From Brachypterus glaber (Eukaryota > Arthropoda > Insecta > Coleoptera > Kateretidae): a stretch of 64,000 bases of DNA. A model generated the notes under the pieces. That model was not told the origin of the DNA and did no database searches. It saw only the letters and a list, made by a program, of their open reading frames with translations. Position numbers and translations under genes: made by a program. Below are positions 1-64,000 of this stretch, in pieces. The stretch spans positions 3,139,340-3,203,339 of the forward strand of contig OY294050.1 of NCBI GenBank assembly GCA_958510825.1, read 5' to 3'. Position 1 is the first letter of the stretch. Each line of letters starts with the position of its first letter.

Positions 1-3000
1 TTAATCCTGGCTGGCCCAAGCAAATCAAAAACCGACTGGTTGCTGGAAAAAGAAAACTTGTCGGGGTCCTCACGGGCCACTGCAACCTAAGGAAGCACCT
101 GGCAACAATGCGGATTCTAGAGAGTCCGCTAGGCCCAGAGTGCGAAGAGGATGAAACATCCTCTCATTACTTAGCCGAGTTACTTAGCAAATATAATTTT
201 TTTTTTATAGGTCGGAGCCATTTAAGGGACCAATAATACACAGGATATTTTTTGTGCCTTTCGCTGACATTCTCTTAGACATAATGTCAATTGTTTGAAA
301 ATAGGTCTTCACGTCTAGTTATATATTATTAAGTTTTATTTATAACTATACACATAAAATGTTGTAACGCCGTAAATATGATTCAGCAACTATAAAACAT
401 TCTTGTAGCTTTAATAAACTTCCAGTAAAGTGGGAAGCGCGTACCGCCAACGTCTATATTTTTAATAACATTTATTAATAATTAATTTAATCCTGGCTGG
501 CCCAAGCAAATCAAAAACCGACTGGTTGCTGGAAAAAGAAAACTTGTCGGGGTCCTCACGGGCCACTGCAACCTAAGGAAGCACCTGGCAACAATGCGGA
601 TTCTAGAGAGTCCGCTAGGCCCAGAGTGCGAAGAGGATGAAACATCCTCTCATTACTTAGCCGAGTTACTTAGCAAATATAATTTTTTTTTATAGGTCAG
701 AGCCATGAAATGGACCAATAATACACAGGATATTTTTTTGTGCCTTGAGAATGTCACTCTTAGACATAATGTCAATTGTTTGAAAATAGGTCTTCACGTC
801 TAGTTATATATTATTAAGTTTTATTTATAACTATACACATAAAATGTTGTAACGCCGTAAATATGATTCAGCAACTATAAAACATTCTTGTAGCTTTAAT
901 AAACTTCCAGTAAAGTGGGAAGCGCGTACCGCCAACGTCTATATTTTTAATAAAATTTATTAATAATTAATTTAATCCTGGCTGGCCCAAGCAAATCAAA
1001 AACCGACTGGTTGCTGGAAAAAGAAAACTTGTCGGGGTCCTCACGGGCCACTGCAACCTAAGGAAGCACCTGGCAACAATGCGGATTCTAGAGAGTCCGC
1101 TAGGCCCAGAGTGCGAAGAGGATGAAACATCCTCTCATTACTTAGCCGAGTGTGTCAGATACGACAGGATCAGGTTGCAAGTCTTTGAAACAAAGACTCA
1201 ACCAAGAGGAACTAAGAGATTCTCTTAGACATAACGTCAGTTGTTTGAAAATAGGTCTTCACGCCTAGTTATACATTATTAAGTTTTCTTTATAACAACC
1301 ACCTTATTTACAAATTATCTACATAAAATGTTGTAACGCCGTAAATATGATTCAGCAACTATAAAACTTGTAGCTTTAATAAACTTCCAGTAAAGTGGGA
1401 AGCGCGTACCGCCAACGTCTATATTTTTAATAAAATTTATTAATAATTAATTTAATCCTGGCTGGCCCAAGCAAATCAAAAACCGACTGGTTGCTGGAAA
1501 AAGAAAACTTGTCGGGGTCCTCACGGGCCACTGCAACCTAAGGAAGCACCTGGCAACAATGCGGATTCTAGAAAGTCCGCTAGGCCCAGAGTGCGAAGAG
1601 GATGAAACATCCTCTCATTACTTAGCCGAGTTACTTAGCAAATATAATTTTTTTTTATAGGTCAGAGCCATGAAATAATACACAGGATATTTTTTTGTGC
1701 CTTGAGAATGTCACTCTCAGACATAATGTCAATTGTTCGAAAATAGGTCTTCACGTCTAGTTATATATTATTAAGTTTTATTTATAACTATACACATAAA
1801 ATGTTGTAACGCCGTAAATATGATTCAGCAACTATAAAACATTCTTGTAGCTTTAATAAACTTCCAGTAAAGTGGGAAGCGCGTACCGCCAACGTCTATA
1901 TTTTTAATAAAATTTATTAATAATTAATTTAATCCTGGCTGGCCCAAGCAAATCAAAAACCGACTGGTTGCTGGAAAAAGAAAACTTGTCGGGGTCCTCA
2001 CGGGCCACTGCAACCTAAGGAAGCACCTGGCAACAATGCGGATTCTAGAGAGTCCGCTAGGCCCAGAGTGCGAAGAGGATGAAAAATCCTCTCATTACTT
2101 AGCCGAGTGTGTCAGATACGACAGGATCAGGTTGCAAGTCTTTGAAACAAAGACTCAACCAAGAGAAACTAAGAGATTCTCTTAGACATAACGTCAGTTG
2201 TTTGAAAATAGGTCTTCACGCCTAGTTATACATTATTAAGTTTTCTTTATAACAACCACCTTATTTACAAATTATCTACATAAAATGTTGTAACGCCGTA
2301 AATATGATTCAGCAACTATAAAACTTGTAGCTTTAATAAACTTCCAGTAAAGTGGGAAGCGCGTACCGCCAACGTCTATATTTTTAATAAAAGTTATTAA
2401 TAATTAATTTAATCCTGGCTGGCCCAAGCAAATCAAAAACCGACTGGTTGCTGGAAAAAGAAAACTTGTCGGGGTCCTCACGGGCCACTGCAACCTAAGG
2501 AAGCACCTGGCAACAATGCGGATTCTAGAGAGTCCGCTAGGCCCAGAGTGCGAAGAGGATGAAACATCCTCTCATTACTTAGCCGAGTTACTTAGCAAAT
2601 ATAATTTTTTTTTATAGGTCAGAGCCATGAAATGGACCAATAATACACAGGATATTTTTTTGTGCCTTGAGAATGTCACTCTTAGACATAATGTCAATTG
2701 TTTGAAAATAGGTCTTCACGTCTAGTTATATATTATTAAGTTTTATTTATAACTATACACATAAAATGTTGTAACGCCGTAAATATGATTCAGCAACTAT
2801 AAAACATTCTTGTAGCTTTAATAAACTTCCAGTAAAGTGGGAAGCGCGTACCGCCAACGTCTATATTTTTAATAAAATTTATTAATAATTAATTTAATCC
2901 TGGCTGGCCCAAGCAAATCAAAAACCGACTGGTTTCTGGAAAAAGAAAACTTGTAGGGGTCCTCACGGGCCACTGCAACCTAAGGAAGCACCTGGCAACA

Positions 3001-3160
3001 ATGCGGATTTTAGAGAGTCCGCTAGGCCCAGAGTGCGAAGAGGATGAAACATCCTCTCATTACTTAGCTGAGTGTGTCAGATACGACAGGATCAGGTTGC
3101 AAGTCTTTGAAACAAAGACTCAACCAAGAGGAACTAAGAGATCTCCCCTGGGCCAATATC
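1..3160 (+). repeat. Tandem array of chimeric retrotransposon/satellite units (~480 bp)
   Basis: Seven near-identical segments start at 1, 487, 972, 1452, 1929, 2409 and 2894, a spacing of 477-486 bp. Each opens with ~180 bp encoding the C-terminal part of a non-LTR retrotransposon RNase H region (motifs LTGHCNLRKHL and CEEDETSSHYLAEC can be read in frame), followed by a ~300 bp AT-rich satellite spacer ending near GTGGGAAGCGCGTACCGCC. Two unit types are visible. Type A (1, 487, 1452, 2409) leaves the retrotransposon sequence right after LAE and continues into a TTACTTAGCAAATATAA spacer. Type B (972, 1929) keeps ~80 bp more of the retrotransposon (CVRYDRIRLQVFETKTQ). Order is A-A-B-A-B-A, then a terminal unit with the natural 3' end. 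The array runs off the left window edge. Confidence 0.9.
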
Positions 3161-5390: not shown

Positions 5391-5963
5391 ATGAAACGTG
5401 AGTTAAATCTGTTAAATAACATGGTTAGGGATAAAGATTATACTATCCAGTTACAAAAAGATAAAATATCCGATTTATCTAAATTATTAAGTAGGCCTAC
5501 GATACCATCTTTCACAAGTAGTTCCAACGTTTCAAGCTGTCAGAATAATTTTATGACGCAAAATAATAACAATATAAATAAACCTACAAATAAGTTAATT
5601 ATTGGCAAAAAGGATAGTAAATCCGATAAAAAGCTTAGTGATGATAATTTGTGCCTAAATGCATCTATAAGAAGGAAGTGGGTGCATATTTCGCGTGTTG
5701 AACCAGGTGCCTCAGTGGATCATATGGCTAAATACATCAAACAACAATTTAAAATCACCGATATTAAATGTTTTAAGTTAATGCAGAATGATGATACATG
5801 TTCTTTCAAAATTGGTGTCAAGGAAGATGTTTTTGAATCGCTTCTCAATGCCGATCTCTGGGACAATGGAGTTGCTGTTCGTGAGTTTATTAATTATCCA
5901 CGTCGCGACGTCACGACGCGTCGGAAGTCATTTCAGAACAATACAAACCAAATCGGTCAATAA
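5391..5963 (+). CDS. ORF1 protein of the non-LTR retrotransposon
   Basis: Presumed nucleic-acid-binding ORF1 protein of the element. The frame is open from 5301 to the TAA at 5961-5963. The first in-frame ATG is 5391 (MKRELNLLNN...), which I use as start; position 5349 is TTG, not ATG. If ORF1 homology extends upstream, the true start is lost or frameshifted. The N-terminal third is charged and Leu-rich with coiled-coil character (MKRELNLLNNMVRDKDYTIQ), followed by an Asn/Ser-rich linker. The C-terminal ~90 residues (from RRKWVHISRV through KCFKLM, SFKIGVK to VAVREFINY) resemble the RRM-like C-terminal domain seen in ORF1 of CR1-group elements. No CCHC knuckle is visible. The 3' end overlaps ORF2 in another frame. 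Confidence 0.7.
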   Translation: MKRELNLLNNMVRDKDYTIQLQKDKISDLSKLLSRPTIPSFTSSSNVSSCQNNFMTQNNNNINKPTNKLIIGKKDSKSDKKLSDDNLCLNASIRRKWVHISRVEPGASVDHMAKYIKQQFKITDIKCFKLMQNDDTCSFKIGVKEDVFESLLNADLWDNGVAVREFINYPRRDVTTRRKSFQNNTNQIGQ

Positions 5964-8784
5964 CAGTGATAGTATAGATATTTTTTACCAAAACGTCCGT
6001 GGTCTACGTACCAAAACACGACAACTTCTTTATTCAATATTAAGTTCATCATACTCTATAATCGTACTAACGGAAACTTGGCTTAATGACTCGTTTTTTA
6101 ACCGTGAACTGTTTGATAAAAGATACGTTGTATACCGCAGTGACCGATGTCTTGATACAAGTGATAAAGAACGTGGTGGTGGATCACTTATTGCAGTGAA
6201 GAAATCTTTAATATCAAATGAAGTAAGCAGTGAGGAAATAAATCCTAGGGAAGAACTATGGGTTAAAATCGGTGTAGGAAAAACCAATTTAATACTAGGA
6301 GCTATCTACATCCCTCCGGAATCGAAGATTGAAACATACCTTGGTCATTTTCAAAAGATTAAAAATCTGCAAAATACCTTTATCAATGACACATTTTGTA
6401 TTTTAGGTGACTATAACTTGCCTAAATTAAATTGGTTTGTTACAGAAGAGGGGTGCATACCATTAAATGCCACATCTGAAACTGAAACTACTGTATGTGA
6501 TTATATGAACTATTTAGGTTTAACCCAATTCAATCCAATCTTAAATTGCAACAATGTTATTTTAGACCTAGTGTTTTGTCATAATCCGATTACTGTTGTT
6601 GAATCTACACCTTTAACAAGGCTAGACAAAAATCATCCCGCCTTAGATTTAATTATATCTGGGTTTAACTACATAAAAATGCCCAGCAATGACATCGAAT
6701 CTTATAATTTTAACAAGGCTGATTTTAATACTATTAATACGGAAATCTCCAAAATTAATTGGAAATTTCTTAATAATTTGCCTCTAAACGAGGCTGTTAC
6801 CCAATTTTATAACTTTTTAAATAAATTATTTGAAAAATACGTCCCAAAAACAGTAAAAAAACAGTCTAGTTTTCCCATTTGGGTTCATAAGGATACGCAA
6901 AATCTCATATTTAAGAAAAAAGAAGCTCATAAAAAGTTTAAGTTATCAAATTTACCCCTTGATTATCAAGTGTTTTCTGACTTAAGAAAGGCATGCGAAG
7001 AAAAATTAAAATTAGATCACGACTTGTACATAACAGATATACAAGAAGGCATTATTGATGATTCAAAAAAATTTTGGGGATATATAAAATCCGTTAAAAC
7101 TGATACAGAAGTACCAAACATTATAAACTTTCAAGGAAATCCCTATTCAGGCGGTCAAAATATATGTAATGCTTTCGCTTCTTTTTTCAAAAGTACTTAT
7201 CAAGACTCAAATTTGAATACCTTAGATTCTAGCTATGATTCCACATTAAATAATTTTTCTTTCTTTGATTTATTCGAAAATGACATACATGTAGCCATCT
7301 CTAGATTAAACAGCAACAACACTAGTGGACCCGATGGTATACCTGGGACCTTTATTAAGAAATGCCTTTCTTTGGTTGAGCCATTGTTAATTATTTTCAG
7401 AAAATGTTTGAACAATGGTGATTATCCTATAGCATGGAAAACCTCGAAAGTCATTCCAATTTACAAATCAAACAGTAAGTCGAATATCAGTAATTACCGC
7501 CCAATATGTATTAATTCGAATTTTGCTAAAATGTTCGATTTTATTGTTTCAAATCAAGTAATGCAGCATGTCAAACATACAATTATTGACGAACAACATG
7601 GATTCATATCGGGTAAGTCTACTGAAACCAACTTATTTTTATTTACTAATTTAATAACAACATCCCTAGAGGAGGGACACGTTGTTGAATGTATTTTCAC
7701 CGACTTGCAGAAGGCCTTTGATAGAGTACCAGTACCGCTGCTTCTATTGAAACTAGAAAAATTTTACCATATTAATGGTCCACTCTTATCATGTTTAAGC
7801 TCTATGTTAAATGGACGTAAACAGTTTGTATATTTAAATGGCTTTATCTCAGATGTGTTCGATGTTCTCTCAGGTGTTGGCCAGGGTACCCATTTGGGTC
7901 CAATACTGTTCTTGTTGTTTATAAATGATGTCAAAAAAATCTTAACTGTCTTATTCCTTTTATTTGCCGATGATTGCAAACTTTTCAAGGTTATTAAATG
8001 TCTTGCTGATAAGATTCATCTTCAAAACGATCTTACTCTGTTTAATAACTGGTGTAAGTCAAATGGGTTATGTTTAAACATTTCAAAATGTAAATCAATG
8101 ACCTTCACTAGGAAATTAATGCCCACTTACGGTGTATATTGTATAGATAATGTCCCAATCGATAGAGTTGAAGTTTTTAAAGATTTAGGTGTTCACCTTG
8201 ATACCAAATTAAATTTTACTGATCATATTGACAAGATAGTTACTAAGGCAAATAAAAATTTAGGGTTTATTAAACGATATACTACTACGTTTACTGATAC
8301 ACGATGTCTAATTGTTTTATACACTAGTTTTGTTCGGTCAGGCCTAGAATACGGGTCATTGATTTGGTCGCCAAGTTATACAACCCATATATTACGTTTA
8401 GAAAATATTCAAAAAAAATTTATTAGATTACTGTGTTTCAAAAATAACATTGACTATGCAAATAGCAACATTAACGAGTTGTTAACTTATTTTACCTTAC
8501 CTTTATTGGAGAAACGTCGTTCATACTACGATATTATGTTTATTTACAAAGTTTTTCACTTCATAATAAAATGTCCACCAATTCTTTCACAATTTTCTAT
8601 CTGTGTTCCATTAGCAAACTTAAGGTTTAATAATTTATTTTTTGTTCCATTTCACCGAACAAACTATGGAATGCACTCTCCTTTATGTAGAATGACCAAT
8701 TTAATAAACGCAATCAATGACTGTGATATTTTTTATTTAAGTTTAAATAAATTCAAAAATAACATTAAAAGAGTATTATATTAA
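5788..8784 (+). CDS. ORF2: APE endonuclease-reverse transcriptase polyprotein
   Basis: Open frame of 998 codons. Residues 1-58 overlap ORF1 and look non-conserved; family-like sequence starts at about residue 62 (SIDIFYQNVRGL), just after the ORF1 stop, so translation by reinitiation or frameshift is likelier than use of the ATG at 5788. Endonuclease landmarks: Q68-N69, E96 in LTETW, RGGGSLIAV near 129-137, LGDYN 206-210 and H283. RT landmarks: SGPDGIP 513-519, NYRPI 569-573, D639 in FTDLQKAFD, GVGQGTHLGP near 696-705 and FADD 726-729. FADD replaces the usual YADD; both aspartates are present. A C-terminal ~200-residue region follows, without RNase H. Length (~940 conserved residues) is normal for CR1/Jockey ORF2. 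It acts in target-primed reverse transcription in the nucleus. Confidence 0.9.
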   Translation: MMIHVLSKLVSRKMFLNRFSMPISGTMELLFVSLLIIHVATSRRVGSHFRTIQTKSVNNSDSIDIFYQNVRGLRTKTRQLLYSILSSSYSIIVLTETWLNDSFFNRELFDKRYVVYRSDRCLDTSDKERGGGSLIAVKKSLISNEVSSEEINPREELWVKIGVGKTNLILGAIYIPPESKIETYLGHFQKIKNLQNTFINDTFCILGDYNLPKLNWFVTEEGCIPLNATSETETTVCDYMNYLGLTQFNPILNCNNVILDLVFCHNPITVVESTPLTRLDKNHPALDLIISGFNYIKMPSNDIESYNFNKADFNTINTEISKINWKFLNNLPLNEAVTQFYNFLNKLFEKYVPKTVKKQSSFPIWVHKDTQNLIFKKKEAHKKFKLSNLPLDYQVFSDLRKACEEKLKLDHDLYITDIQEGIIDDSKKFWGYIKSVKTDTEVPNIINFQGNPYSGGQNICNAFASFFKSTYQDSNLNTLDSSYDSTLNNFSFFDLFENDIHVAISRLNSNNTSGPDGIPGTFIKKCLSLVEPLLIIFRKCLNNGDYPIAWKTSKVIPIYKSNSKSNISNYRPICINSNFAKMFDFIVSNQVMQHVKHTIIDEQHGFISGKSTETNLFLFTNLITTSLEEGHVVECIFTDLQKAFDRVPVPLLLLKLEKFYHINGPLLSCLSSMLNGRKQFVYLNGFISDVFDVLSGVGQGTHLGPILFLLFINDVKKILTVLFLLFADDCKLFKVIKCLADKIHLQNDLTLFNNWCKSNGLCLNISKCKSMTFTRKLMPTYGVYCIDNVPIDRVEVFKDLGVHLDTKLNFTDHIDKIVTKANKNLGFIKRYTTTFTDTRCLIVLYTSFVRSGLEYGSLIWSPSYTTHILRLENIQKKFIRLLCFKNNIDYANSNINELLTYFTLPLLEKRRSYYDIMFIYKVFHFIIKCPPILSQFSICVPLANLRFNNLFFVPFHRTNYGMHSPLCRMTNLINAINDCDIFYLSLNKFKNNIKRVLY

Positions 8785-27925: not shown

Positions 27926-27953
27926 TCGCTTAGATCTAAGATACAGATAGAAC

Positions 27954-28721
27954 ATGAAAATATTATTTTTGTGTTTAGGCGTGTGCCTATGTGTGGTATA
28001 CACACAAGCTAGGATTATCACAGAAGATGAAGAAAATCAGGGTTTATCTAACCAGGGTTTAACAAACGTAGATTTAGAAGTAGCAGAGTCGAAACACTCA
28101 AGTCACCACGAATCAGGAGGAGGCCACGAACACCATGGCGATCACCACAGTAGTCATGGTGAAAAAGGCGATAAAGGATACAAAACCGATCACCACCACG
28201 ACAAAGGAGGTCATGGAAAACACGGAAAACATCACCACGAAAGTCACCACGCAGAAAAAGGAGGTCACAAAAAATCCCACCACGATGAAGCAGGCCACTA
28301 TGGTGAACATGACGAACACGGTAAGAAACATAAAGGAGGGAAATTCGGAGAGAAAAAGGGACATAAAAAAGGACAGAAAACAACAGGATATCATCACAAA
28401 GCACACAAGGATGAATATCACAAAGAACATAAATTCTACGACGACCATCACAAGGGAGGTCATCACTCCAAACATGGAGATTTCCACGGTCATCATGGAG
28501 GTAAATCTGGGCATCACAAGAAGGGAGGAAGTCACAAAAGTGGACACCATGACGATCACTACGGGAAGAAAGGACATTCTGATAAAGGACATTATGACGA
28601 TGACCACAAAGGATATAAAGGACATGGTGGGCATGAAAGTCATCACTCCCATCACTCTGACTATGGAAAGAAAGGAGGGCATTCTGGAGGAAAGGAGTAT
28701 GGATTCAGTGAAAAGCATTAG
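27954..28721 (+). CDS. Secreted histidine/glycine/lysine-rich protein, copy 1
   Basis: A 255-residue intronless ORF. Residues 1-19 (MKILFLCLGVCLCVVYTQA) form a clear signal peptide. A short acidic propeptide-like stretch follows (RIITEDEENQ, LEVAESKHSS), then ~200 residues almost wholly His, Gly, Lys, Asp/Glu, Ser and Tyr, with local repeats such as GHHKKGGSHKSGHH, HHSDYGKKGGHSGG and DDHKGYKGHGGHESHH, ending GFSEKH. Such composition suggests extracellular metal (Zn/Cu/Ni) binding or a cuticle, silk or secretion matrix role; that is inference. It resembles insect secreted His-rich proteins that I recall as a Pfam domain-of-unknown-function family, possibly DUF4779. The start is supported by the TATA box, the signal peptide and a paralogue with the same layout. 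An AATAAA signal lies at 28777-28782. Reverse-strand frames are shadows of CAY-rich codons. Confidence 0.88.
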   Translation: MKILFLCLGVCLCVVYTQARIITEDEENQGLSNQGLTNVDLEVAESKHSSHHESGGGHEHHGDHHSSHGEKGDKGYKTDHHHDKGGHGKHGKHHHESHHAEKGGHKKSHHDEAGHYGEHDEHGKKHKGGKFGEKKGHKKGQKTTGYHHKAHKDEYHKEHKFYDDHHKGGHHSKHGDFHGHHGGKSGHHKKGGSHKSGHHDDHYGKKGHSDKGHYDDDHKGYKGHGGHESHHSHHSDYGKKGGHSGGKEYGFSEKH

Positions 28722-28799: not shown

Positions 28800-29090
28800 A
28801 TTTTAAAATAAGGTCCTTCGTTTTTCCTACTATATACAAAGATTTAATAAAATTGGTCCTACAAAAGTGTAAGAGAAGGATGGGCAATAAGTGCCCCCTT
28901 AAAATTGCCTTGTTTAAACTGGATAATGAAAACTTTTGATGTTTTTATCAAATATTATTAATTTCAGTCAAATAAACTAAGCTTATCAAATTATTTTTAA
29001 CCAGATTTTAAAAAATTCATTTTCACCACGAAAAAAAATTAAAATCGGCTTATAGGTTCTTTTTGCATCCCACTTCCGATATAAGTTTAC
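28800..29090 (+). repeat. 3' flank duplicated with the pseudogene
   Basis: AGGTCCTTCGTTTT, ACAAAGATTTAATAAAATT, CAAAAGTGTAAGAGAAG, AAACTAAGCTTATCAAATTA and AAAATCGGCTTATAGG recur in order at 30345-30610, after the pseudogene. This shows that the gene's 3' part and flank were duplicated as one block. Confidence 0.8.
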
Positions 29091-29111
29091 ATATATTTTT
29101 AAAATTCTTCA

Positions 29112-29648
29112 AGGGATACAAAACCGATCACCCCCATGACAAAAGAGATCATGGAAAACACGAAAAACATCACCACGAAAGTCACCATGCAAAAAAAGGA
29201 GGTCATAAAAAATCTCACCACGATGAAGCTGGCCACTATGAACCCGACGAACACGATAAGAAATAAAGAAAGAAATAAAGTAGCAAAATTCGGAGATAAA
29301 AGGACATAAAAAAGGACAGAAAATAACAGGATATCATCACAAAGCACACAAGCATGAATATCACAAAGAACATAAATTCTACGAGGACCATCACAAAGTA
29401 GGTCATCACTCCAAACATAGATATTTCCAAGGTCACCATGGAGGTAAATCTGGGCATCACAAGAAGGGAGGAAGTCACAAAAGTGGATACCATAACGATC
29501 ACTACGGGATAAAGGACATTATGACGATAACCACAAAGGATATAAAGGACATGGTGGGCATGAAAGTCATCACTCCCATCACTCTGATTATGGAAAAAAA
29601 GAAGGACACTCTGGAGGAAAAGAGTATGGATTTAGTGAAAAGCATTAG
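29112..29648 (+). pseudogene. Broken copy of the His-rich secreted protein gene
   Basis: Homology to the gene at 27954 begins abruptly at GGATACAAAACCGATCACC (equivalent to about 28174). The promoter, signal peptide and first ~70 codons are missing. The frame reads GYKTDHPHDKRDHGKHEKHH to a stop at 29264-29266. Further stops and frameshifts follow (GAAATAAAGAAAGAAATAAAG; a deletion of the GKKGHSDKG-encoding segment near 29507). It ends in the same SEKH* codons at 29648, with AATAAA at 29705-29710. Matching 3' flanks make this a tandem DNA duplication, not a processed copy. No promoter is seen, and expression is not expected. Confidence 0.88.
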
Positions 29649-29714
29649 TGCATTTTTGTTGATTTGTTTAGTTATGTTTGATTTTGATTTGTATATTAAA
29701 GATGAATAAATTAT

Positions 29715-32790: not shown

Positions 32791-32825
32791 TATAAATACC
32801 CGATGCAAAATTTTAAAACAGTAGT
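32791..32825 (+). promoter_or_regulatory. TATA box and initiator of the second His-rich gene
   Basis: TATAAATA at 32791-32798, with an ACAGT-like arthropod initiator at 32818-32822, ~27 bp downstream. Leader to the ATG is ~27 nt. Parallel to the arrangement at 27892. Confidence 0.65.
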
Positions 32826-32846
32826 TACAATTTAACACCTTGTATC

Positions 32847-33602
32847 ATGAGGTGCATAGTGCTTTGTGTGGGTATCTGCCTACTGGCAACCCTTTGCAGT
32901 TCGAGGATTATAACAGAAGAGGAAGAAAATGAATCATCCCTAGCACCCTTAGATTTAGAAATCGCAGAATCGAAGCACTCAAGTCACCACGAATCAGGAG
33001 GAGGCCACGAACACCATGGCGATCACCACAGTAGTCATGGTGAAAAAGGCGACAAAGGATACAAAACCGATCACCACCATGACAAAGGAGGTCATGGAAA
33101 ACACGGCAAACATCACCATGAAAGTCACCACGCAGAAAAAGGAGGTCACAAAAAATCCCACCACGATGAAGCTGGTCACTACGGTGAACACCATGAGCAC
33201 GGTAAGAAACACAAAGGAGGAAAATTCGGAGAGAAAAAGGGACACAAAAAAGGACAAAAAACAACAGGATTCCATCACAAATCACACAAGGACGAATACC
33301 ACAAACATCACAAATTCTATGATGATCATCACAATGGAGGTCATCACTCTAAACACGGACATCACCACGGACATCACGGAGGTAAATCTGGGCATCACAA
33401 GAAGGGAGGCAGTCACAAAAGTGGACACCACGCCGATCATTACGGAAAGAAAGGACATTCCGACAAAGGACATTATGATGAGGACCATAAAGGATATAAG
33501 GGACATGGTGGACATGAAAGTCATCATTCTCATCATTCTGATTTCGGAAAGAAGGGTGGACATTCCGGAGGTGAAGAACATGGTTTCTCTGAGAAACATT
33601 AA
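32847..33602 (+). CDS. Secreted histidine/glycine/lysine-rich protein, copy 2
   Basis: A 251-residue intronless paralogue of the gene at 27954. Signal peptide MRCIVLCVGICLLATLCSS, then RIITEEEENESS and LDLEIAESKHSSHH. From there it is almost residue-for-residue like copy 1 (GEKGDKGYKTDHHHDKGGHG, GEKKGHKKGQKTTG, SGHHADHYGKKGHSDKGHYD), ending GFSEKH. Signal peptide, leader and 3' UTR DNA are unlike copy 1, while the DNA from ~32965 to ~33290 is nearly identical to it, a pattern suggesting gene conversion or concerted evolution. Same inferred role (secreted His-rich, possible metal-binding or matrix protein; unproven). AATAAA at 33682-33687. Both genes lie on the + strand ~4.9 kb apart. Confidence 0.88.
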   Translation: MRCIVLCVGICLLATLCSSRIITEEEENESSLAPLDLEIAESKHSSHHESGGGHEHHGDHHSSHGEKGDKGYKTDHHHDKGGHGKHGKHHHESHHAEKGGHKKSHHDEAGHYGEHHEHGKKHKGGKFGEKKGHKKGQKTTGFHHKSHKDEYHKHHKFYDDHHNGGHHSKHGHHHGHHGGKSGHHKKGGSHKSGHHADHYGKKGHSDKGHYDEDHKGYKGHGGHESHHSHHSDFGKKGGHSGGEEHGFSEKH

Positions 33603-55897: not shown

Positions 55898-56845
55898 TTT
55901 CTATAGATGCCAAAATTTTTTAAAAGCATTAATAGGTTTTAACAAGGGAGAGATTAAAATTGTAAATTTTACTACATCATATTTTGAAAAGAGATTTTAA
56001 AAGTTGGGTTAAGGTAAAATAGAGTAGGTACTGAATTTTTTGTTAGTTTTTTGTATTGTACTATTTAACTTATTATTATAAGGCTTTATAATTAAAAAAG
56101 TTATGTAAATTAGGTTTTATTTTTCCGATAAATTTTATTCTACTAATTTTCATTTTTAGAAAAAAAAATCTAAGCGAATACTATGTTTTTGGTTTGATAT
56201 GTTTTGAATTTGACAAATAAATTAGCTTACTTCAAAAATTAATTCTTACCTTCTCATCAAACTATGTTGTAAAATGTACGATTTCAATGCTCACCTTGAT
56301 AAAACCTATTAATGCTTTTTAAATAATTTCGGCTGATAGCTGAACAAAAACAATCGACTTTTTAAATATAAATTAAATCAACTAACACGCTTTGAGATTG
56401 TTCAAAAATGTTTAATTAATTGGAAGTACTTTTTTGAAGAAAAATTGGAAAATATATGGTATTTACTTCCTATGTATAATTAACCCAAAACTACAAGCAA
56501 GGCATCTGATGCAGTGAGTACACATCAATAAAATATTTTTATGTATATTAAAAATATATGGATTCCGAATCTTTCAAGGAATACGGTACATAAATTCAAA
56601 AATAATCATGTATACCATTATTAAATAAAGCATTTCTCGCTATATAAAATGGCGCTCAAACTTATGTCAAACGTGCAGTGCAATGGAAAGCCTTACACAA
56701 ATGAAAACGTCATTTAAAACCAAATTGACATACACTGGATTTGTAATAAACCAAGAAACAACTTAGATAAATATATTTACTATATGTAGTTCCTTTTACA
56801 TGTATTGTTTTAAGAGTGGTCACACGAATAATAAGAATAAATGCG
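55898..56845. other. AT-rich noncoding DNA
   Basis: Nothing supportable. Confidence 0.5.
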
Positions 56846-56993
56846 CTAGTAGTGAAAAAAATAATATTTAAACTAAGGTAGAGAAGACTATTATAGCCTC
56901 GCACTCTTAAATCCCTCGCTGCTACGCAGCTCGGAATTTAATACGCTCGGCTATAAAAAAAAAATTCTCTACCTTGGTATATAATTACTATTA
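56846..56993. mobile_element. Hairpin MITE, GTAGAGAA stem (copy 2)
   Basis: CTAGTAGTGAAAAAAATAAT at the left; stem AAGGTAGAGAA with TTCTCTACCTT; core TCTTAAATCCCTCG / TTTAATACGCTCGGC. Sister of 36085-36233. Confidence 0.75.
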
Positions 56994-59640
56994 TTTTATA
57001 TTATTTCTGTATTTGATCATCAATAATTTTATTATGTATCGGTCGTAATTTCGGAGATTAAAGAGTTCACCCCTAAAACTGATTTTTTATGCTTCCGTTG
57101 CATACAAAAAATCGTTCAGATAAAGTTTTGAAGTGTTAAATGAAAATGAAACATCATAAAGTGTTTTTCTGAGTGGAAAAAGGTCAATATGGTAACCGCA
57201 CATTTTCAGCAGTAAACGAGGCATAAACATCTCTGCAAAAGGGTGGCTGGTCCGTCCCTGATAACCGCAGAACGTCTGCTGACCACTTTATTTAATCTTT
57301 GATCTACAGCAACACCCTTTGATGAAATATGTTATAGAGGGCTTTAAATAATAGCCCCTGTGAAAGCTACAGTAGTGTCAACTTTAAGCACTTCGATTAA
57401 AATTATTTTTTTCGAAAATGTACTTAAAACCAGCCACCTGTTTAGTAAGAATATCCTTTTTAGCTTGTTTATTTTCTTTTATTTATTTATTTTATTTACT
57501 TTTTGTTTGAGAGAATTTTTTTTATATTTTTAGGTTCTACATACACAAAGAGGAAAGAATTCCTAAAAAATATACACTAAAACGTCGTTTGGCACTCCGT
57601 ATACTTAAAAGAATCGAAGACTATAGAGGGATCAAATATGGCTCAATGGCCAAAGAAGTTTATTTTTTTAATTAAATGGAGAATCGTATCTCGTACGTGT
57701 TTGAAGCAATATTAAATTCGTGTGCCGTAAAAGGCTAAAAGTATTCGAACATTCGAGAGATCGTTTTTACAAAAGAGAATAACCTAAAGTCTTATTATAC
57801 CTCCAAGCCCTTTTTCTATGGATGTCGCTGTAAATATGTTTTTTACATTTTGGAGCCCACATGGTACCACATATAGCGCAAAAAAAGGACTAAAAAGAGT
57901 TTGACCTTTTAAAATATTTGTAGGGATTCCGCAGAGTCATGTTTTTGCAACGTTGCAACGATTTTGCAACGTTGCATCTATTAAATCAAGCTAGTTATAT
58001 ATGCAAACTTCTAAATTTTAGAATTCAAAGTGACTCACCACGGTGACTCTAATGTCCAAAATTGTTTAATTTTCCTTAGGATAGGCATTAGTTTCATTTT
58101 TTTTAATTTAGTAAATTTCAATGTTTTTTTTTTCAGGCCTTTGCGCAACGTGGCAACAGCGCTCAATCGTTATATTCTATTCTAGGGCACATAACTCTAT
58201 CACCTACAAGAGAGAGATAGCAGCTATATATCCAGAATGCGAAATATAGGCAACCAACATGAAAACTTTTGACATTTTGATCGAAAAAATATTCCACAAA
58301 CGTCACCTTAAAAAGTAAACAAAATACTAGACAGCGTTGACAAATTTTTGTAAACATGTATTAATCGCCCGTACAGTTAGAAAGAGAAAACAACACACTT
58401 CGAGAGAAAAAACATGCGATCTCGCAAATTGGCAGGGTATCAAAATGGCGATTCTCTATCCCCTAAATATCCTGCGCCAAAAGCTGCGTAAATAGGTAAA
58501 TTTCGTTATAAGGATTGAAGTTATGTGGTCTAGGGTCTACAAAAAGACACGGAGATATAATTTTACTATAAAAACGCATACTGCCCTGAAAGTATGTAAT
58601 GATTTTACATAAAAATATATTGTTGAATAAAAGTTTAAAGAATGTTATATTGATAAATATATCAAATACAATGTTACAAACACTATTTTTCAAATAGTTG
58701 TAACAGAGTGGTCACCCTGTATATATTGAGTATTTATATTTTTATTTGTATGGTTATTGAACGTGACATAGCATTGTTCTTAACGGGTGGTTTGCTGTTT
58801 ATTTTTACAGATGCTAATATTATTAGTATTTGGGAAGCTTGCATTTTGTGTAATTGAGGCGTTTACATAAAAAGGGTGTACATTTTTATTAGACTAATTA
58901 ATTGGTTAATTCGGTTTTCTTAATTAATAAATATGGGAATATCTTTAATGATGTTGTTTTAGATACTGGCAATAGTTAGGGATTGTTTGTAAAAATGGTT
59001 TTTTCTACTTCGAAGCAATGTCATGAAAATCAATATCAATCAATATGTAGAAGTAGTTTTTTTTAATCATTTCGCTTAATTAAATTTAAATTCATTTTCA
59101 GTAATTTAAAGTAATTCAGTTTATTTTGATCGAAAACTCCTCAGATATTTTTTGTTTATAGTTTTATGACTGGTATATCAGCATCTTTGGGAAGGGACGT
59201 TTTGCCTGTTTTTAGTTATGGTTAAAAATGGGATTCGGAAATATGTAGTCGTCTAGTAAAGTTGGGTCTTAGGGAAGTTGTAGAATTAACGTAATATGTG
59301 AAAATTTAAAGTAAAATTTAGAGTCGCGCGTATAGAAATATCTGAAGGGTAAAGATGCTATGATTTCATAATTTTTCCATTTCAACTTAAAATATTTTGT
59401 TGTTTTTTTATTTGTTTTTAACTTTTCATTTTTCTTTAAATTAAATTCTTTTCATTGTTGTTTAATCCTTTTGTTTTATTGGCAAGATATATTTTAATTA
59501 ATTTAAAATATATTTGAAGTTTCTTTACCTTTCGCATATCTACAGTTTGTGTTATAAGAAGAAGTCTTCACTGGAATAAGAAAGTCAGATAAGTATTAAG
59601 TAGTAATTAGATTCTTATATTAACATTTGTTATCATATGA
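56994..59640. other. AT-rich DNA, no secure genes
   Basis: A stretch at 57533-57680 preceded by a T-tract and AG reads FYIHKEERIPKKYTLKRRL and remains open for ~45 codons; it could be a decayed exon or transposase fragment but is too short to name. The rest shows nothing. Confidence 0.35.
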
Positions 59641-60102
59641 TATATGATAATGTAATATTATTACTGGTGGCACGCTACCCAAATAGCAACTATACAGCTA
59701 TTTGTATTTGATACGCCTCCAAATAATAGTGTGTGGTTCTAAATTAATGCCTTAGATAATTAATATTTTTGGCTATAATTGGGACCAGCACCCTATTACA
59801 AATTGGTGGACAGCGGAAACGCGTTAAATAACGCTGGGTTTTATTTTTTTTACGTTTTTATAGTTTTTTTTGCGGTTTTTACGAAGAATTTTCAGTTTTC
59901 ACATATTTCTGTTTTTTTTTGGTAACCGATTCATTAGTTTTACGTAAAAGTACGAAAAGGTATAAGTTTTTATTTTTTTGCGGATTTAAAAATCGAGTTT
60001 TTTAGCGATTTCCTTTGCGGTCGTTTTTTTTTTAATTTTTGTTTTAGACTATAGATATTTGTTTTTCCCCAAGGTAAATTTATTTAATTATTTTATAACA
60101 AA
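59640..60102 (+). other. Leader of the Gag-macrodomain gene; possible LTR/primer-binding junction
   Basis: Around 59791-59820, CCCTATTACAAATTGGTGGACAGC resembles an LTR 3' end (...ACA) followed by a TTGGTG-type primer-binding site, as in several Ty3/gypsy-type elements. After it comes a long U-rich leader. I cannot identify the tRNA or the 5' LTR border, and a matching 3' LTR is not in the window. Confidence 0.3.
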
Positions 60103-60612
60103 ATGTGTTGCGAATGTTGCAAAAAGATGACTCAAGTGAAAAAGAGCAATTTTTCCTTTGACTTAGTAGAAAATTTTTCAGGTGGTCCCGATTTTTCATT
60201 ATTTTTTACTGCCATAGATATTGTTGCTAAAAATAATAGTTTGACGGAGCAAGAGACAATAGATTTAATTATTTTGAAATTAAGAGGTCAGGCATTGGTT
60301 TATTTTCACGCTTTACGAGAAAATGAATGCCCCACTAATTTGGTGGATTTAAAACAGTTTTTTAGTAGAATTTATACGAAAAAGGTTAATTTTTTTGATA
60401 TTAAAAATGAACTGTCTACTTGTATACGTTTAAATGATGAACCGTTAGCAAATTTTGTAATTCGTTTAAAAATATTAGCAAACAAAATGTTTTCAGATAA
60501 ATTGAGTCCTAATGAGCAAACAGTTTATAATCGTCTTATCTTAGATCAGTTTTTTGAAGGTATAGACACAGTTTTAGCTAATGAAATACTTAGTAGCGGT
60601 AAATTTTTTTAG
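60103..60612 (+). CDS. Gag-like protein, N-terminal ORF
   Basis: 170 codons from ATG 60103 (context AACAAAATGT) to TAG 60610-60612. Begins with a Cys cluster (MCCECCKKM). Residues ~18-165 look like a retrotransposon Gag/capsid domain: FDLVENFSGGPDFSLFFTAI, then LKLRGQALVYF, DLKQFFSRIYTKK, ELSTCIRLNDEPLANFVIRL and FEGIDTVLANEIL, matching the usual Ty3/gypsy-type Gag order (SG...F, L.G.A...., L...F...., E....F..RL). The stop is reached through GGT AAA TTT TTT TAG. The next frame (+1) continues the same domain without a break in character, so the product may be extended by frameshifting or the frame may be broken by one extra T. No zinc knuckle is seen here. Function by family: self-assembling RNA-packaging coat. 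Confidence 0.7.
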   Translation: MCCECCKKMTQVKKSNFSFDLVENFSGGPDFSLFFTAIDIVAKNNSLTEQETIDLIILKLRGQALVYFHALRENECPTNLVDLKQFFSRIYTKKVNFFDIKNELSTCIRLNDEPLANFVIRLKILANKMFSDKLSPNEQTVYNRLILDQFFEGIDTVLANEILSSGKFF

Positions 60613-61609
60613 CGTCGATGAAGCATTGCAAGCTGGGGAGAATATACTAGAAATTAGAACGAGATTAATTAAACAAACTTTTCACGATCAATTTATAGAA
60701 TTTCAGGATAATCTCAAAATATCTGTTTTACAAAATGAAATGAATTATAATAATAATAATAATGAATTTTACGGTAATAATAGTAATAATGATAGAAACG
60801 GTTATAATATTAATAGTAATTATAATTTTAAACCTAGGTATAATCAAACACGCAATAGGTACAATAATTTTTATGATAGGCGGAAATTTCAAAGGCACAA
60901 TCTGGTAGGAAATTTGGGTTTTTACAATTTTAAATATGATAATACCATAAAGGGTACCGAAATTAGAGATCAGGATAATTACGAATATTTTAAATCAATT
61001 AATTACAAAGCGGACGATTACAAAATTAAGGAAAAGTACCAAGACATATTTTTGTGCCCGGAAAATGTTTCTCTCGCTCACTGTGTTTCAGAAGATTTAG
61101 ATATGAATAAAGGAATTGCAACTCAATTTAAGTCAAAATTTGGTAAATTAGAACAATTAAGAAATCAAAAAGTTCGTACAGGCGGTTTGGCGATTTTAAA
61201 GGATAACGATAGGTTTATTTATTATTTGGTAACGAAAAAGTATTCATACGAAAAGCCGACATATGAAATTCTGTGGAAGTCACTTTTAGAGCTTAGAAAT
61301 CATGTAATTAAAAATAATGTTAAATATTTGGGTTTGCCAAGAATAGGATGTGGTTTGGATCAGCTTAATTGGGTTAAAGTAAAGGAAATGATTTGTTATA
61401 TTTTTAAAGACGTTGATGTTAATATTACGATTTTCTCATATCCGCTAAAAGCAAGATTATCAGTTTATAGTAATTTAAATAGCCAACAAGTACATTTTGA
61501 GTCGGATTATTATGGGACTAATACCGAAAAGGAATCACATATAATTACGCAAAATCCGGAAGTTAGCGGTACATTTTCAGGTAGAGATGAACATTATATT
61601 AGGTACTAA
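60581..61609 (+). CDS. Gag C-terminal region fused to a TARG1/OARD1-type macrodomain
   Basis: 342-codon ORF; the ATG at 60581 overlaps the end of the Gag-like ORF by 32 nt in the +1 frame. Residues ~8-45 (FFSVDEALQAGENILEIRTR) continue the Gag-like domain. 55-108 is an Asn/Arg/Tyr-rich linker (possible RNA binding; no CCHC knuckle). Residues ~150-288 are a macrodomain of the TARG1 (OARD1) ADP-ribose glycohydrolase class: DIFLCP 155-160, SLAHCVSEDLDMNKGIA 164-180, TGGLAILK 200-207, YYLVTKK 214-220, KPTYE 225-229, LPRIGCGLD 252-260, NITIFSY 281-287. The lysine and aspartate known to be catalytic in human TARG1 correspond to K219 and D260, both kept. A 54-residue tail has no known domain. Inference: removes ADP-ribose from proteins or nucleic acid, tied to a Gag scaffold. 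No pol genes follow. Confidence 0.85.
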   Translation: MKYLVAVNFFSVDEALQAGENILEIRTRLIKQTFHDQFIEFQDNLKISVLQNEMNYNNNNNEFYGNNSNNDRNGYNINSNYNFKPRYNQTRNRYNNFYDRRKFQRHNLVGNLGFYNFKYDNTIKGTEIRDQDNYEYFKSINYKADDYKIKEKYQDIFLCPENVSLAHCVSEDLDMNKGIATQFKSKFGKLEQLRNQKVRTGGLAILKDNDRFIYYLVTKKYSYEKPTYEILWKSLLELRNHVIKNNVKYLGLPRIGCGLDQLNWVKVKEMICYIFKDVDVNITIFSYPLKARLSVYSNLNSQQVHFESDYYGTNTEKESHIITQNPEVSGTFSGRDEHYIRY

Positions 61610-64000
61610 CTGTTGTTTTAAAAGGTGAAATTTAATTATAATAACTAGACCGAAGTTTTTGTATATGAGTAGAAACGTAGTTTTGTATTATTACGATATT
61701 TTTCTAAGTAAAAAAGATCAGAAAATTTATGAAAATATGTTTTTTCCTTGTTATTTTCGAAAATATTATTTGTTTGAATTTGTTGTCTTTATTTTAAAGT
61801 TTTGTTTATACAAACCAGTATTTACGTTTTTTTTTTCACCCCAAAATCCTAAGCGTCACTAATTTTAGGCCCTAACTGACAACATGTAAAAACATGTGCT
61901 GTGAACCTTTTTGTGCAGGTCAAGAATTTGTACATTTAAACCCTTTAATTCAATATTTTGTGTAAAGTATTTTTAAAATTTATAATGAAAATTATAAATA
62001 TATATATATATATATATATTATGAAAGATAATAGACGTATTAATATTTTACAAATGAGAAAAGCATAATTTCATGTTAAAAATAGTTTTTATCGTCATTA
62101 AGCTTAAAAAAGCTTATTTTAACGTTTAGCGTAAATATTATTGAATAATTTTTGAAAGTTAATTTTCTGATCTATTTTTATGTATAATTGTCATGACAAC
62201 TCGCTAAGATTTTTTTTAGATAAAAAGGCCATTTGTTTTTTTTTTTAAATATATTTTTTTTGACACTGAAGTTTTCTTTAATTTTAATAAACATAATTAT
62301 GTTGAATTTGTTTTTAAAAGTTTATGTGCAGAGAGTAGTTTTGAAATACAGTTTTAATATTTGCAGTTATGAAGAAATTTAGTTATATCAAGGCTTAAAA
62401 TTGGCATAAGTTACAGTTAAATATATTTTCCAAGAAATTATTAGTTTTTAACGTTTGTTTTATTTTTAAAATATAAATAAATGTTTTTTGAAGTTATTTT
62501 TGCAGTTATCGATAGTACTCAAATGTTAAGTAATAATTATTGCATATGTTATGTTTTATGTCTGTATGTTAAGGTGGCCACCGAGAATAAATGTGCGTAT
62601 GATTGGTTGAATAAAAGTCTATGAATGTTAATGCAAAATTTTGTTTTGTTTTGGGCATTAAAATGCGTAATTTCTTGTTTTTAAAAAAAGTTGTCGTTTT
62701 TTTTTGAAGATACTATCAATAACTGACTATTTTTAATATTTTTGAGTGTTTTGATAATTTTGGTTGTTAAATTACTTTCAGTTTTTTAAGAAAAGCCTAA
62801 ATGAATATTATAAAAATTAAAATTTATCTTTTGCACATAATTTTGTTAATTTTTTTATGTTTTACGAGTTTTTTTTATAAAATTACATTTTTTCAGTAAC
62901 GTAATAAGAATAAGAAGCGCAATAAGAAACGTTTAGTTTGGTAATAATAAATTTTGAGTATATGAGTTCTTGGGTTAGCGAGTTATTTTTTTAAAGTAAT
63001 AATGAGTTAAGTAATTACGTTTTTTGAAAAGTTTGTAATCTACATAAATTTCAGTTAGAAAAATAGGAATTGATTTAATTTTTAAGGTTTGAAGCTGAAA
63101 CCTCTGTTTAAAACAGACTAATTTATCAATGAAAGTATTTTGCAATAATATTTGAACCTAGAAGTCTAAATTAAAGATTGTAGCTATATTTTTTTAAACT
63201 GATTAACAACCATAAGATATGGACTAATCAAGTATAGCTTATATCATTTGTAGTGTTACAAACACGTTTTCTTTTGACAAGTTTTGAGTGGAAAATATCA
63301 TAATAAATATTTGTTAATTTTTCAGAATGATGTATTAATGTAATAATTTGATTCAGTTTTATTGGTTTATATAGTAGGAAGTATTTAAAGTTTTTAGAGA
63401 TTTCGAAATGAATTATGAAAAGGTATAGTTATAAAAGAGGTTTTATTGAGTTTATAGGTATATTTTTATACATTTGCTTCAAAAGTTAAGCAAATTAAGA
63501 ATTTAAAAAGGTTTTTTTTGTTTATATTATACAGTCCAAATGAAATTTTTAGCAGAAGCTAAAAGTGTTAGTATGGTATACCATAGAAGTATTTTTTTGA
63601 ATTTAAAAGTATATACCGGTATATTAAGTAAAAGAATAGGTACATAAACCTATGAGTACATAAATAAGAGAAATAAGGTAAAATAAGTGAAATAAAATAA
63701 TTTGATAAATAAATTAGTAAATATTGGGTATAATTAGTAAAGGAATTGGTACAAAAACCTATGCATATATGAGTAGATAAATAAGAGAAGTAAGGTAAAA
63801 TAAGGAAAATAAAATAAGTTAATAAATAAATTAGTAAATATTGAGTATAATAAATAAACTAATAATGAGTAAATAATTAGGAAATAAAAAATGAGTAAAT
63901 AATGGAACTAGTATTTTTAATTATCGTTACGTGATCATTATACCAATTGAAACAGATTAAGATTAATTACACGAACGCTATAGTTACGTTGTAATTGCAA
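61610..64000. other. AT-rich 3' region, no pol genes
   Basis: No protease, RT, RNase H or integrase frame follows the macrodomain ORF. (AT)n occurs at ~61999-62019. At 63628-63855 there is a ~110 bp tandem duplication (AGTAAAAGAATAGGTACATA against AGTAAAGGAATTGGTACAAA; AGTAAATATTGGGTATAAT against AGTAAATATTGAGTATAAT). A short open frame at 61659-61862 lacks coding character. Confidence 0.55.

What the first reader, a model, noticed from the sequence alone, without database searches (positions are those of the whole stretch)
60103..61609. Gag-like protein joined to a TARG1-type ADP-ribose hydrolase macrodomain
Seen: a Gag/capsid-like domain followed by a linker and a macrodomain with the TARG1 signature (SLAHCVSED, TKK, LPRIGCGLD) and both catalytic residues (K219, D260 of the second ORF). 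Known: TARG1/OARD1 hydrolyses ADP-ribose from Glu/Asp and from DNA; viral macrodomains counter host ADP-ribosylation defences. Inference: a retroelement, or a gene co-opted from one, uses a captured host-type ADP-ribose hydrolase in its particle, possibly to escape PARP-based restriction or DNA ADP-ribosylation. I do not recall a described Gag-TARG1 family, but I cannot search.
Basis: partly seen in the sequence, partly recalled or inferred. Interest (0 to 1): 0.92.

Follow-up and report, generated by a model that had tools for sequence, protein, structure and literature searches.

The report
Jumping gene with capsid-hydrolase fusion
The stretch is a young mobile genetic element of an insect (probably a beetle) whose only long gene joins a virus-like shell protein to an enzyme of the kind that removes ADP-ribose tags, and relatives of that enzyme sit in many other mobile elements, which hints that such tags may be used against mobile DNA.

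Summary
ORF1 is a Ty3-type Gag capsid; ORF2 carries a complete TARG1-type macrodomain with K219 and D260. They are one gene cut by a frameshift in this copy. In the same 648-Mb genome at least 64 macrodomain matches of full query length and 93% identity or more exist, 41 of 64 in a frame of 499 codons or more. The fusion is the only long gene of a ~8-kb LTR element: 1.1-kb LTRs, PBS-like and PPT-like sites, 4-bp target duplications in 17 of 17 copies examined, identical LTRs in the window copy. No pol was found, so it must be moved in trans. The macrodomain is under purifying selection (dN/dS 0.19). TARG1 recurs in other retroelements: five Pol-bearing loci of this genome, four with a Baculo_F envelope, and 46 of 102 long protein hits; a single capture is rejected. 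Most likely role, inferred: an ADP-ribose hydrolase carried by the Gag particle that reverses host ADP-ribosylation. Activity, particles and any anti-defence role are untested.

The parts
58695..58698 (.). 4-bp target-site duplication TAGT, left copy (right copy just outside the window)
   Evidence: identical 4 bp on both sides of the element; seen in 17 of 17 copies examined
58699..59800 (+). 5' LTR (TGTAACA...CTATTACA); no mismatch to the 3' LTR, which lies outside the window at window-equivalent 65610-66711
   Evidence: (0 mismatches of 1103 compared)
59804..59823 (+). primer-binding-site-like sequence 3 bp after the 5' LTR (TGGTGGACAGCGGAAACGCG); tRNA not identified
   Evidence: present after the LTR in the 17 copies printed; LTR end plus site found exactly in 25 of 35 fetched loci
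60103..60612 (+). ORF1: Gag, most of the capsid domain; cut in this copy by a frameshift in the T-run 60604-60610
   Evidence: fold of the same region from an intact copy
60581..61609 (+). ORF2: end of capsid domain, Asn/Arg-rich linker, TARG1-type macrodomain and C-terminal tail; in intact copies one frame with ORF1 (500 aa)
61019..61441 (+). TARG1-type macrodomain (conserved H; K219 and D260 of ORF2)
61610..64000 (+). start of a 3.5-4.0-kb 3' region without pol (continues to window-equivalent 65609; PPT-like AAAAGGGGGGAG at window-equivalent 65595, outside the window)
   Evidence: no + strand frame of 90 codons or more there in 17 copies; no convincing pol/env similarity; PPT

Best explanation
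A young, multi-copy, non-autonomous Ty3-type LTR retrotransposon of an insect genome. Shown: LTRs, PBS-like and PPT-like sites, 4-bp target duplications, and one long gene, a Gag capsid fused through an Asn/Arg-rich linker to a complete TARG1-type macrodomain, intact and under purifying selection in many copies; the window copy is broken. Inferred from the lack of pol: its RNA is copied and integrated by protease, reverse transcriptase and integrase from another element. Inferred from the fusion and the conserved residues: each Gag subunit carries the enzyme, so the particle or its nucleoprotein is loaded with a hydrolase that removes mono-ADP-ribose (from Glu/Asp side chains or from DNA, by the recalled activity of TARG1) put on Gag, cDNA, integration sites or chromatin by host ADP-ribosyltransferases. 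Recurrent capture of the same domain by other Ty3 elements fits a general counter-measure.
For: Fusion in one frame in 16 of 20 fetched copies; genome-wide 41 of 64 full-query matches at 93% identity or more lie in frames of 499 codons or more, 47 of 64 in 478 or more (my count of the table). LTR/LTR mismatches 0-8 per ~1100 bp in 17 copies, 0 in the window copy. TSD 17 of 17. The ORF diverges less (2.6%) than LTR, leader and 3' region (3.8, 5.8, 4.3%). dN/dS 0.34 overall, 0.31 capsid, 0.19 macrodomain over 120 pairs of 16 copies. Key K and D in 20 of 20 fetched copies, 5 of 5 other TARG1-bearing Pols fetched from this genome, 47 of 48 retroelement-labelled domain rows of the protein collection. 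No pol. Recurrence; more than one origin.
Against: No expression, particle or enzyme data. The partner that supplies pol was not found: the TARG1-bearing loci L030-L034 and the nearest Gag relative L035 lack its PBS, and no shared LTR was seen. Recurrence in selfish elements would also fit a role other than counter-defence, such as ADP-ribose binding or DNA-break handling at integration. The C-terminal tail shows no constraint (dN/dS about 2, few changes). Pairs in the dN/dS average are not independent; the copies came from a list ranked by macrodomain similarity and I favoured long frames. Retroelement-borne and other TARG1 domains keep K and D alike (all but two of 108 other rows), so conservation alone does not single out a retroelement function.
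Confidence: 0.66

Rival explanations
1. The macrodomain works as an ADP-ribose reader or tether: it binds ADP-ribosylated chromatin, DNA ends or RNA-protein granules to steer the Gag complex to integration or assembly sites, hydrolysis being secondary.
For: Macrodomains bind ADP-ribose (recalled); in other elements the domain lies next to integrase, which would suit targeting.
Against: Both key residues are kept in 20 of 20 copies and in 47 of 48 retroelement-labelled rows; a pure reader would not need the lysine-aspartate pair (recalled biochemistry).
Confidence: 0.2
2. Passenger: the macrodomain was picked up by chance and hitch-hikes on a successful Gag-only element without benefit.
For: Retroelements pick up host sequence by accident (recalled); the copies are young, so decay could lag.
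Against: Macrodomain dN/dS 0.19, lower than the capsid's 0.31; one capture for all retroelement-labelled rows is rejected and the tree needs 11 label changes, on a poorly resolved tree; five further TARG1-bearing Pol loci in the same genome.
Confidence: 0.07
3. Host-co-opted Gag-TARG1 gene (Arc-like), not a mobile element.
For: Some Gag genes are domesticated (PNMA, Arc; one search shows structural similarity to them).
Against: Tens of nearly identical dispersed copies with LTRs and target duplications.
Confidence: 0.02
4. A deletion derivative: a formerly complete TARG1-bearing gag-pol-env element that lost pol and spreads on its relatives' enzymes, the Gag-TARG1 junction being a by-product of the deletion. 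This concerns origin, not function, and can hold together with the main reading.
For: Other elements in the genome carry TARG1 in Pol; a tree that joins the window domain to the RNase H-integrase group is not rejected (p 0.75).
Against: A tree that joins it to beetle host TARG1 genes is not rejected either (p 0.53), and raw identity is higher to those (49-56%) than to the second tier of this genome (40-45%); the nearest Gag relative has no TARG1.
Confidence: 0.3

Closest known systems
TARG1/OARD1/C6orf130 (human ADP-ribose hydrolase, PDB 2lgr, 4j5r)
   Same: sequence homology over the whole domain (E about 1e-41), key lysine and aspartate aligned
   Different: here fused to a retroelement Gag in a multi-copy mobile element; activity not tested
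Ty3-type (Metaviridae, errantivirus-like) LTR retroelements
   Same: capsid homology to Gags of such elements, capsid-like fold match to Arc, PNMA2 and dArc1, 4-bp target duplication
   Different: no protease, reverse transcriptase, integrase or envelope; TARG1 fused to Gag
Gag-only non-autonomous LTR elements of plants (TR-GAG; papers seen in a search listing only)
   Same: LTR element with a gag gene and no pol (their definition is recalled)
   Different: animal element, gag fused to an enzyme domain, 3.5-4.0 kb of non-coding 3' region
[quoted passage not shown] 2009, as cited in a passage of PMC4977317; original not held)
   Same: a retroelement carrying a macrodomain gene
   Different: additional ORF in a vertebrate retrovirus; type of macrodomain not seen by me; the passage does not describe a Gag fusion
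TARG1-bearing Ty3 Pol polyproteins found here (for example P0061, P0079, P0082, P0136 and loci L030-L034)
   Same: TARG1 domain with the same residues in Ty3 elements
   Different: the domain sits inside Pol (before protease, between RNase H and integrase, or after integrase), not on a Gag that stands alone

Membership tests
LTR retrotransposon | two long terminal repeats, TG...CA ends | tested here: met
   1.1-kb direct repeats, TGTAACA...CTATTACA; right LTR of the window copy lies outside the window
LTR retrotransposon | target-site duplication | tested here: met
   4 bp in 17 of 17 copies examined; uninterrupted site for copy L018 seen in L034
LTR retrotransposon | primer binding site and polypurine tract | tested here: met
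   TGG-initiated conserved site after the 5' LTR and A4G4-6 purine tract before the 3' LTR; the matching tRNA was not identified, so the PBS rests on position and conservation
Ty3/Metaviridae | Gag capsid related to Ty3-type Gags | tested here: met
   fold match (best Foldseek E 3.5e-3, probability 1.00; none at E<=0.001 in the PDB)
Ty3/Metaviridae | Pol with protease-RT-RNase H-integrase | tested here: not met
   no pol in 17 copies; so filed as a non-autonomous derivative, not as a full member
TARG1-type macrodomain | homology to TARG1 rather than to other macrodomains | tested here: met
   human TARG1 structures E 1e-41; other macrodomains in the PDB only E 0.012 or worse
TARG1-type macrodomain | catalytic lysine and aspartate (roles recalled) | tested here: met
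   20 of 20 copies
TARG1-type macrodomain | removal of ADP-ribose from Glu/Asp or DNA | not testable with these tools
   needs a biochemical assay
Gag-only non-autonomous LTR element | gag but no pol, recent copies | tested here: met
Gag-only non-autonomous LTR element | partner element that supplies pol, with matching PBS/LTR | tested here: inconclusive
   none among L030-L035; genome-wide LTR and PBS searches did not complete
Domesticated Gag gene (Arc/PNMA-like) | single or few copies, no LTRs | tested here: not met

The most novel reading that the evidence does not exclude
TARG1-type ADP-ribose hydrolases are a general, repeatedly captured counter-defence of Ty3 and errantivirus-like retroelements, delivered here on every capsid subunit; this implies that insects, and perhaps other animals, restrict retroelements by ADP-ribosylating their proteins or DNA, a defence I know no description of.
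Probability: 0.35. Interest if true: 0.93.

Novelty: new variant of a known kind. Interest (0 to 1): 0.8.

Why it matters
ADP-ribosylation is an established antiviral and anti-phage signal, and viral macrodomains are known erasers (recalled). A retroelement that makes nothing long but a capsid joined to such an eraser, kept under selection, together with repeated capture of the same enzyme by other Ty3 elements, makes the question 'do animals use ADP-ribosylation against retroelements?' directly testable with one small protein. It is also a natural capsid-enzyme fusion in which the cargo is part of the shell protein.

Tried and rejected
Rejected: that ORF1 is not Gag (weak Pfam only, but settle it); that Gag and macrodomain are chance neighbours (fused in tens of copies); that a pol hides in the 3' region (only two weak antisense hits, best E 0.019, both in one copy); a programmed frameshift between ORF1 and ORF2 (most sister copies have a single frame, so the window copy is simply broken); a host gene.

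Led nowhere: single-sequence fold of ORF1 (mean pLDDT 43); viral-contig scans (no relatives confirmed); protein search with ORF1 (none of 256 candidates at E<=0.01); PDB sequence search with ORF1 (none); Rfam on 56000-64000 (none). Nine paper searches found no paper on a Gag-macrodomain fusion or on TARG1 in Ty3 elements (full text of open-licence PMC papers only). Five of the nine returned nothing; the hits of the others I judged by title and start of abstract, and read passages only of PMC4695847 and PMC4977317. A tenth search was on Gag-only elements (listing only).

The macrodomain tree has only 141 columns for 116 or 107 rows, and many forks are open. I dropped nine rows (long branches, second copies, odd rows) before the clade tests, and the quick free search was beaten by held trees. 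It shows more than one capture but not the donor of the window's domain. Retroelement labels on the tree and are mine, from the proteins' other domains; three likely retroelement rows without such support were left out of the 27-row strict set, while a few rows kept in it or rest on motifs or on near relatives (for example P0039, P0119).

Full report
What is there. ORF2 residues 139-286 match human TARG1/C6orf130 chains at E about 1e-41, while other macrodomains in the PDB score only E 0.012 or worse; NCBIfam's DarG antitoxin model also matches, far below its cut-off (52 of 250 bits). K219 and D260 align with the lysine and aspartate of human TARG1 (their catalytic role is recalled). Pfam gives weak, sub-threshold matches only: PNMA for ORF1, Macro for ORF2.

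Gag. A capsid profile built from the Gags of TARG1-bearing Ty3 proteins in hand scored ORF1 at 30.5 bits; the best of 1000 shuffles of ORF1 reached 5.0; of the 257 window frames of 50 aa or more only ORF1's own frame (30.4) is among the eight best rows printed, the eighth being at 2.2 bits. AlphaFold2 of residues 1-220 from an intact copy, with three distant Gags, gave nine helices at mean pLDDT 73.7. The top PDB matches are capsid domains (Arc 6gse, E 3.5e-3, probability 1.00; PNMA2; MOAP1; dArc1; retroviral capsids), although none passed E 0.001; among predicted viral structures the best is ORF1 of a fungal metavirus (E 8.4e-4), followed by a mix of Gags and unrelated proteins. A single-sequence fold of ORF1 was useless (pLDDT 43), and searches of the protein collection and the PDB sequences with ORF1 found nothing. 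Decisive: in the same genome locus L035 holds a gag-pol-envelope element whose Gag is 45% identical to ORF1 over 162 aa, E 9.5e-47.

One broken gene. In the window the capsid frame is cut by a frameshift in the T-run 60604-60610. Intact copies exist: of 20 fetched copies, 16 have the fusion in one frame of 500 codons (501 in one); four, the window copy included, are broken. I picked these 20 from the table and favoured long frames, so the fairer figure is the table's: 64 matches span the whole 142-aa macrodomain query at 93-100% identity, 47 of 64 in a frame of 478 codons or more and 41 of 64 in one of 499 or more (my count). Some of the 478-484-codon ones show stops in the Gag part. Only 150 of 584 candidates were scored, so copy numbers are lower bounds. 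With ORF1 as query, 55 full-length matches at 93-100% were listed (my count), mostly in the same long frames; I did not pair the two lists one by one.

The element. In 17 copies with both LTRs it measures 7.6 to 8.1 kb: LTRs of 1.10-1.15 kb with TGTAACA...CTATTACA ends, a conserved TGGTGGACAGCGGAAACGCG site after the left LTR, a purine tract (AAAAGGGGGGAG with small variants) before the right LTR, and a 4-bp target duplication in 17 of 17. Copy L018 sits in a sequence whose uninterrupted form is seen in L034, with a 4-bp overlap. The window copy runs from window 58699 to an equivalent of 66711; its right LTR lies outside the window. Its LTRs show no mismatch over 1103 bp, the 17 copies 0-8 mismatches, so insertion is recent; I give no date because no rate is known to me for this insect. 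Three of the 20 copies (L012 and L013, a tandem, and L019, where no left LTR was recognised) were left out of these counts.

No pol. In the 17 copies the only other frames of 90 codons or more are short antisense ones of 96 to 123 codons, present in 7 of 17. Fourteen pol or env proteins gave two weak antisense hits in one copy (best E 0.019) in the 3.5-4.0-kb 3' region; the same queries gave 133 cross hits among L030-L034. The element must therefore borrow protease, reverse transcriptase and integrase. I did not find the partner: L030 has another PBS (TGGCGCAGTCGGTAGGA), and none of L030-L035 carries the window element's PBS.

Selection. Over 120 pairs of the 16 intact copies dN/dS (NG86) is 0.34 for the whole ORF, 0.31 for the capsid, 0.19 for the macrodomain; the C-terminal tail is near 2 on few changes. 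Over 136 pairs of 17 copies the ORF is the least diverged region (2.6% against 3.8% LTR, 4.3% 3' region, 5.8% leader). Pairs are not independent and the sample is not random, so the numbers are indicative.

TARG1 in other retroelements. With the macrodomain as query and long candidates, 102 proteins matched; by their precomputed Pfam domains I count 46 of 102 as retroelement proteins, 24 of the 46 from one longhorn beetle, Molorchus minor. Most of the others look like cellular genes of insects. Domain order: before protease (P0041, P0079); between RNase H and integrase (P0061, P0093, P0136); after RNase H with no integrase match in the protein (P0048, P0137); after integrase (P0069, P0076, P0082, P0086). 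In the P0142/P0143 group the order is Gag-protease-TARG1. In the window's own genome a second tier of matches at 40-45% identity lies in frames of up to 1614 codons. Five such loci were fetched. L030, L031, L032 and L034 have a gag-like first ORF (only weak or no Pfam support), a pol with TARG1 between RNase H and integrase, and a Baculo_F envelope; L033 has TARG1 after integrase and a third ORF without Pfam match, its gag lying outside the stretch fetched. A likely host TARG1 exon (L029) is 53% identical to the window's domain over 102 aa; it falls among beetle host genes on the tree, which is why I call the host probably a beetle. The aligned lysine and aspartate are kept in 20 of 20 window-family copies, 5 of 5 of these Pols and 47 of 48 retroelement-labelled rows of the collection, the exception being a second, degenerate domain of P0061; but they are also kept in all but two of 108 other rows.

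Origins. On a 107-row tree (141 columns, poorly resolved) holding the 27 retroelement-labelled rows together is rejected (log-likelihood 213 lower, p-AU 2.4e-7) and the tree needs 11 label changes. The window's domain may group with beetle host genes (p 0.53) or with the RNase H-integrase retroelement group (p 0.75); neither is rejected.

How it most likely works. Shown: a mobile, recent, Gag-only element whose Gag carries a constrained TARG1 domain. Inferred: the fusion places an ADP-ribose hydrolase on each capsid subunit, so that ADP-ribose put on Gag, on reverse-transcribed DNA, on integration sites or on chromatin is removed. A passage of PMC4695847 reports that SIRT6 mono-ADP-ribosylates KAP1 to silence L1 elements, which makes chromatin silencing one plausible target; whether insects do so is not known to me.

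Known or new. LTR elements with gag only are known in plants (search listing); macro domain ORFs are reported in some fish endogenous retroviruses (passage of PMC4977317; Basta et al. 2009 not held). Nine paper searches found nothing on TARG1 in Ty3 elements or on a Gag-macrodomain fusion; most subscription papers and all preprints lie outside that library. I rate it a new variant of a known kind, with an unusual and testable implication.

Noticed in passing
L035 (G000:C18:9364000-9371999): A Ty3-type gag-pol element (pol frame interrupted) whose third ORF is a Monjiviricetes-type fusion glycoprotein (PF24664, E 2e-101), that is an envelope related to negative-strand RNA viruses; no TARG1 found; its Gag is the nearest relative of the window's Gag outside the family.
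   Followed up: partly
L030, L031, L032, L034: Errantivirus-like elements with Baculo_F envelopes and TARG1 between RNase H and integrase, in one genome.
   Followed up: partly
protein hits P0098, P0120, P0123, P0130: DNA ligase III-like proteins that carry a TARG1-type macrodomain, and an XPG-type nuclease joined to one (P0130): repair-enzyme fusions worth a look.
   Followed up: partly
protein hits P0145, P0150, P0153: TARG1-type macrodomain in proteins with another reverse-transcriptase match, with a viral methyltransferase, and with an endonuclease domain: capture beyond Ty3 elements.
   Followed up: partly
protein hits P0069, P0076, P0082, P0105: In these TARG1-bearing Pols a CCCH-type zinc finger follows the macrodomain.
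   Followed up: no
L012/L013 (G000:C1:84095700-84112799): Two copies of the Gag-TARG1 element in tandem, 7115 bp apart, apparently sharing an LTR.
   Followed up: no
window 1-3073: Tandem array of a ~485-bp unit (6.4 copies) whose frames repeat a piece with a Cys/His pattern like the C-terminus of some non-LTR reverse transcriptases (pattern recalled; no Pfam match).
   Followed up: no
window 5782-8781: Non-LTR retrotransposon frame of 1000 codons with endonuclease and reverse transcriptase matches.
   Followed up: partly
window 27951-28718 and 32817-33599: Paralogous His/Lys-rich proteins of family DUF4779 (E 4e-41 and 2e-41); fragments that look alike by eye lie at 29012-29706.
   Followed up: partly
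window 63618-63863: Minisatellite with a ~110-bp unit inside the element's 3' region; it differs between copies.
   Followed up: no
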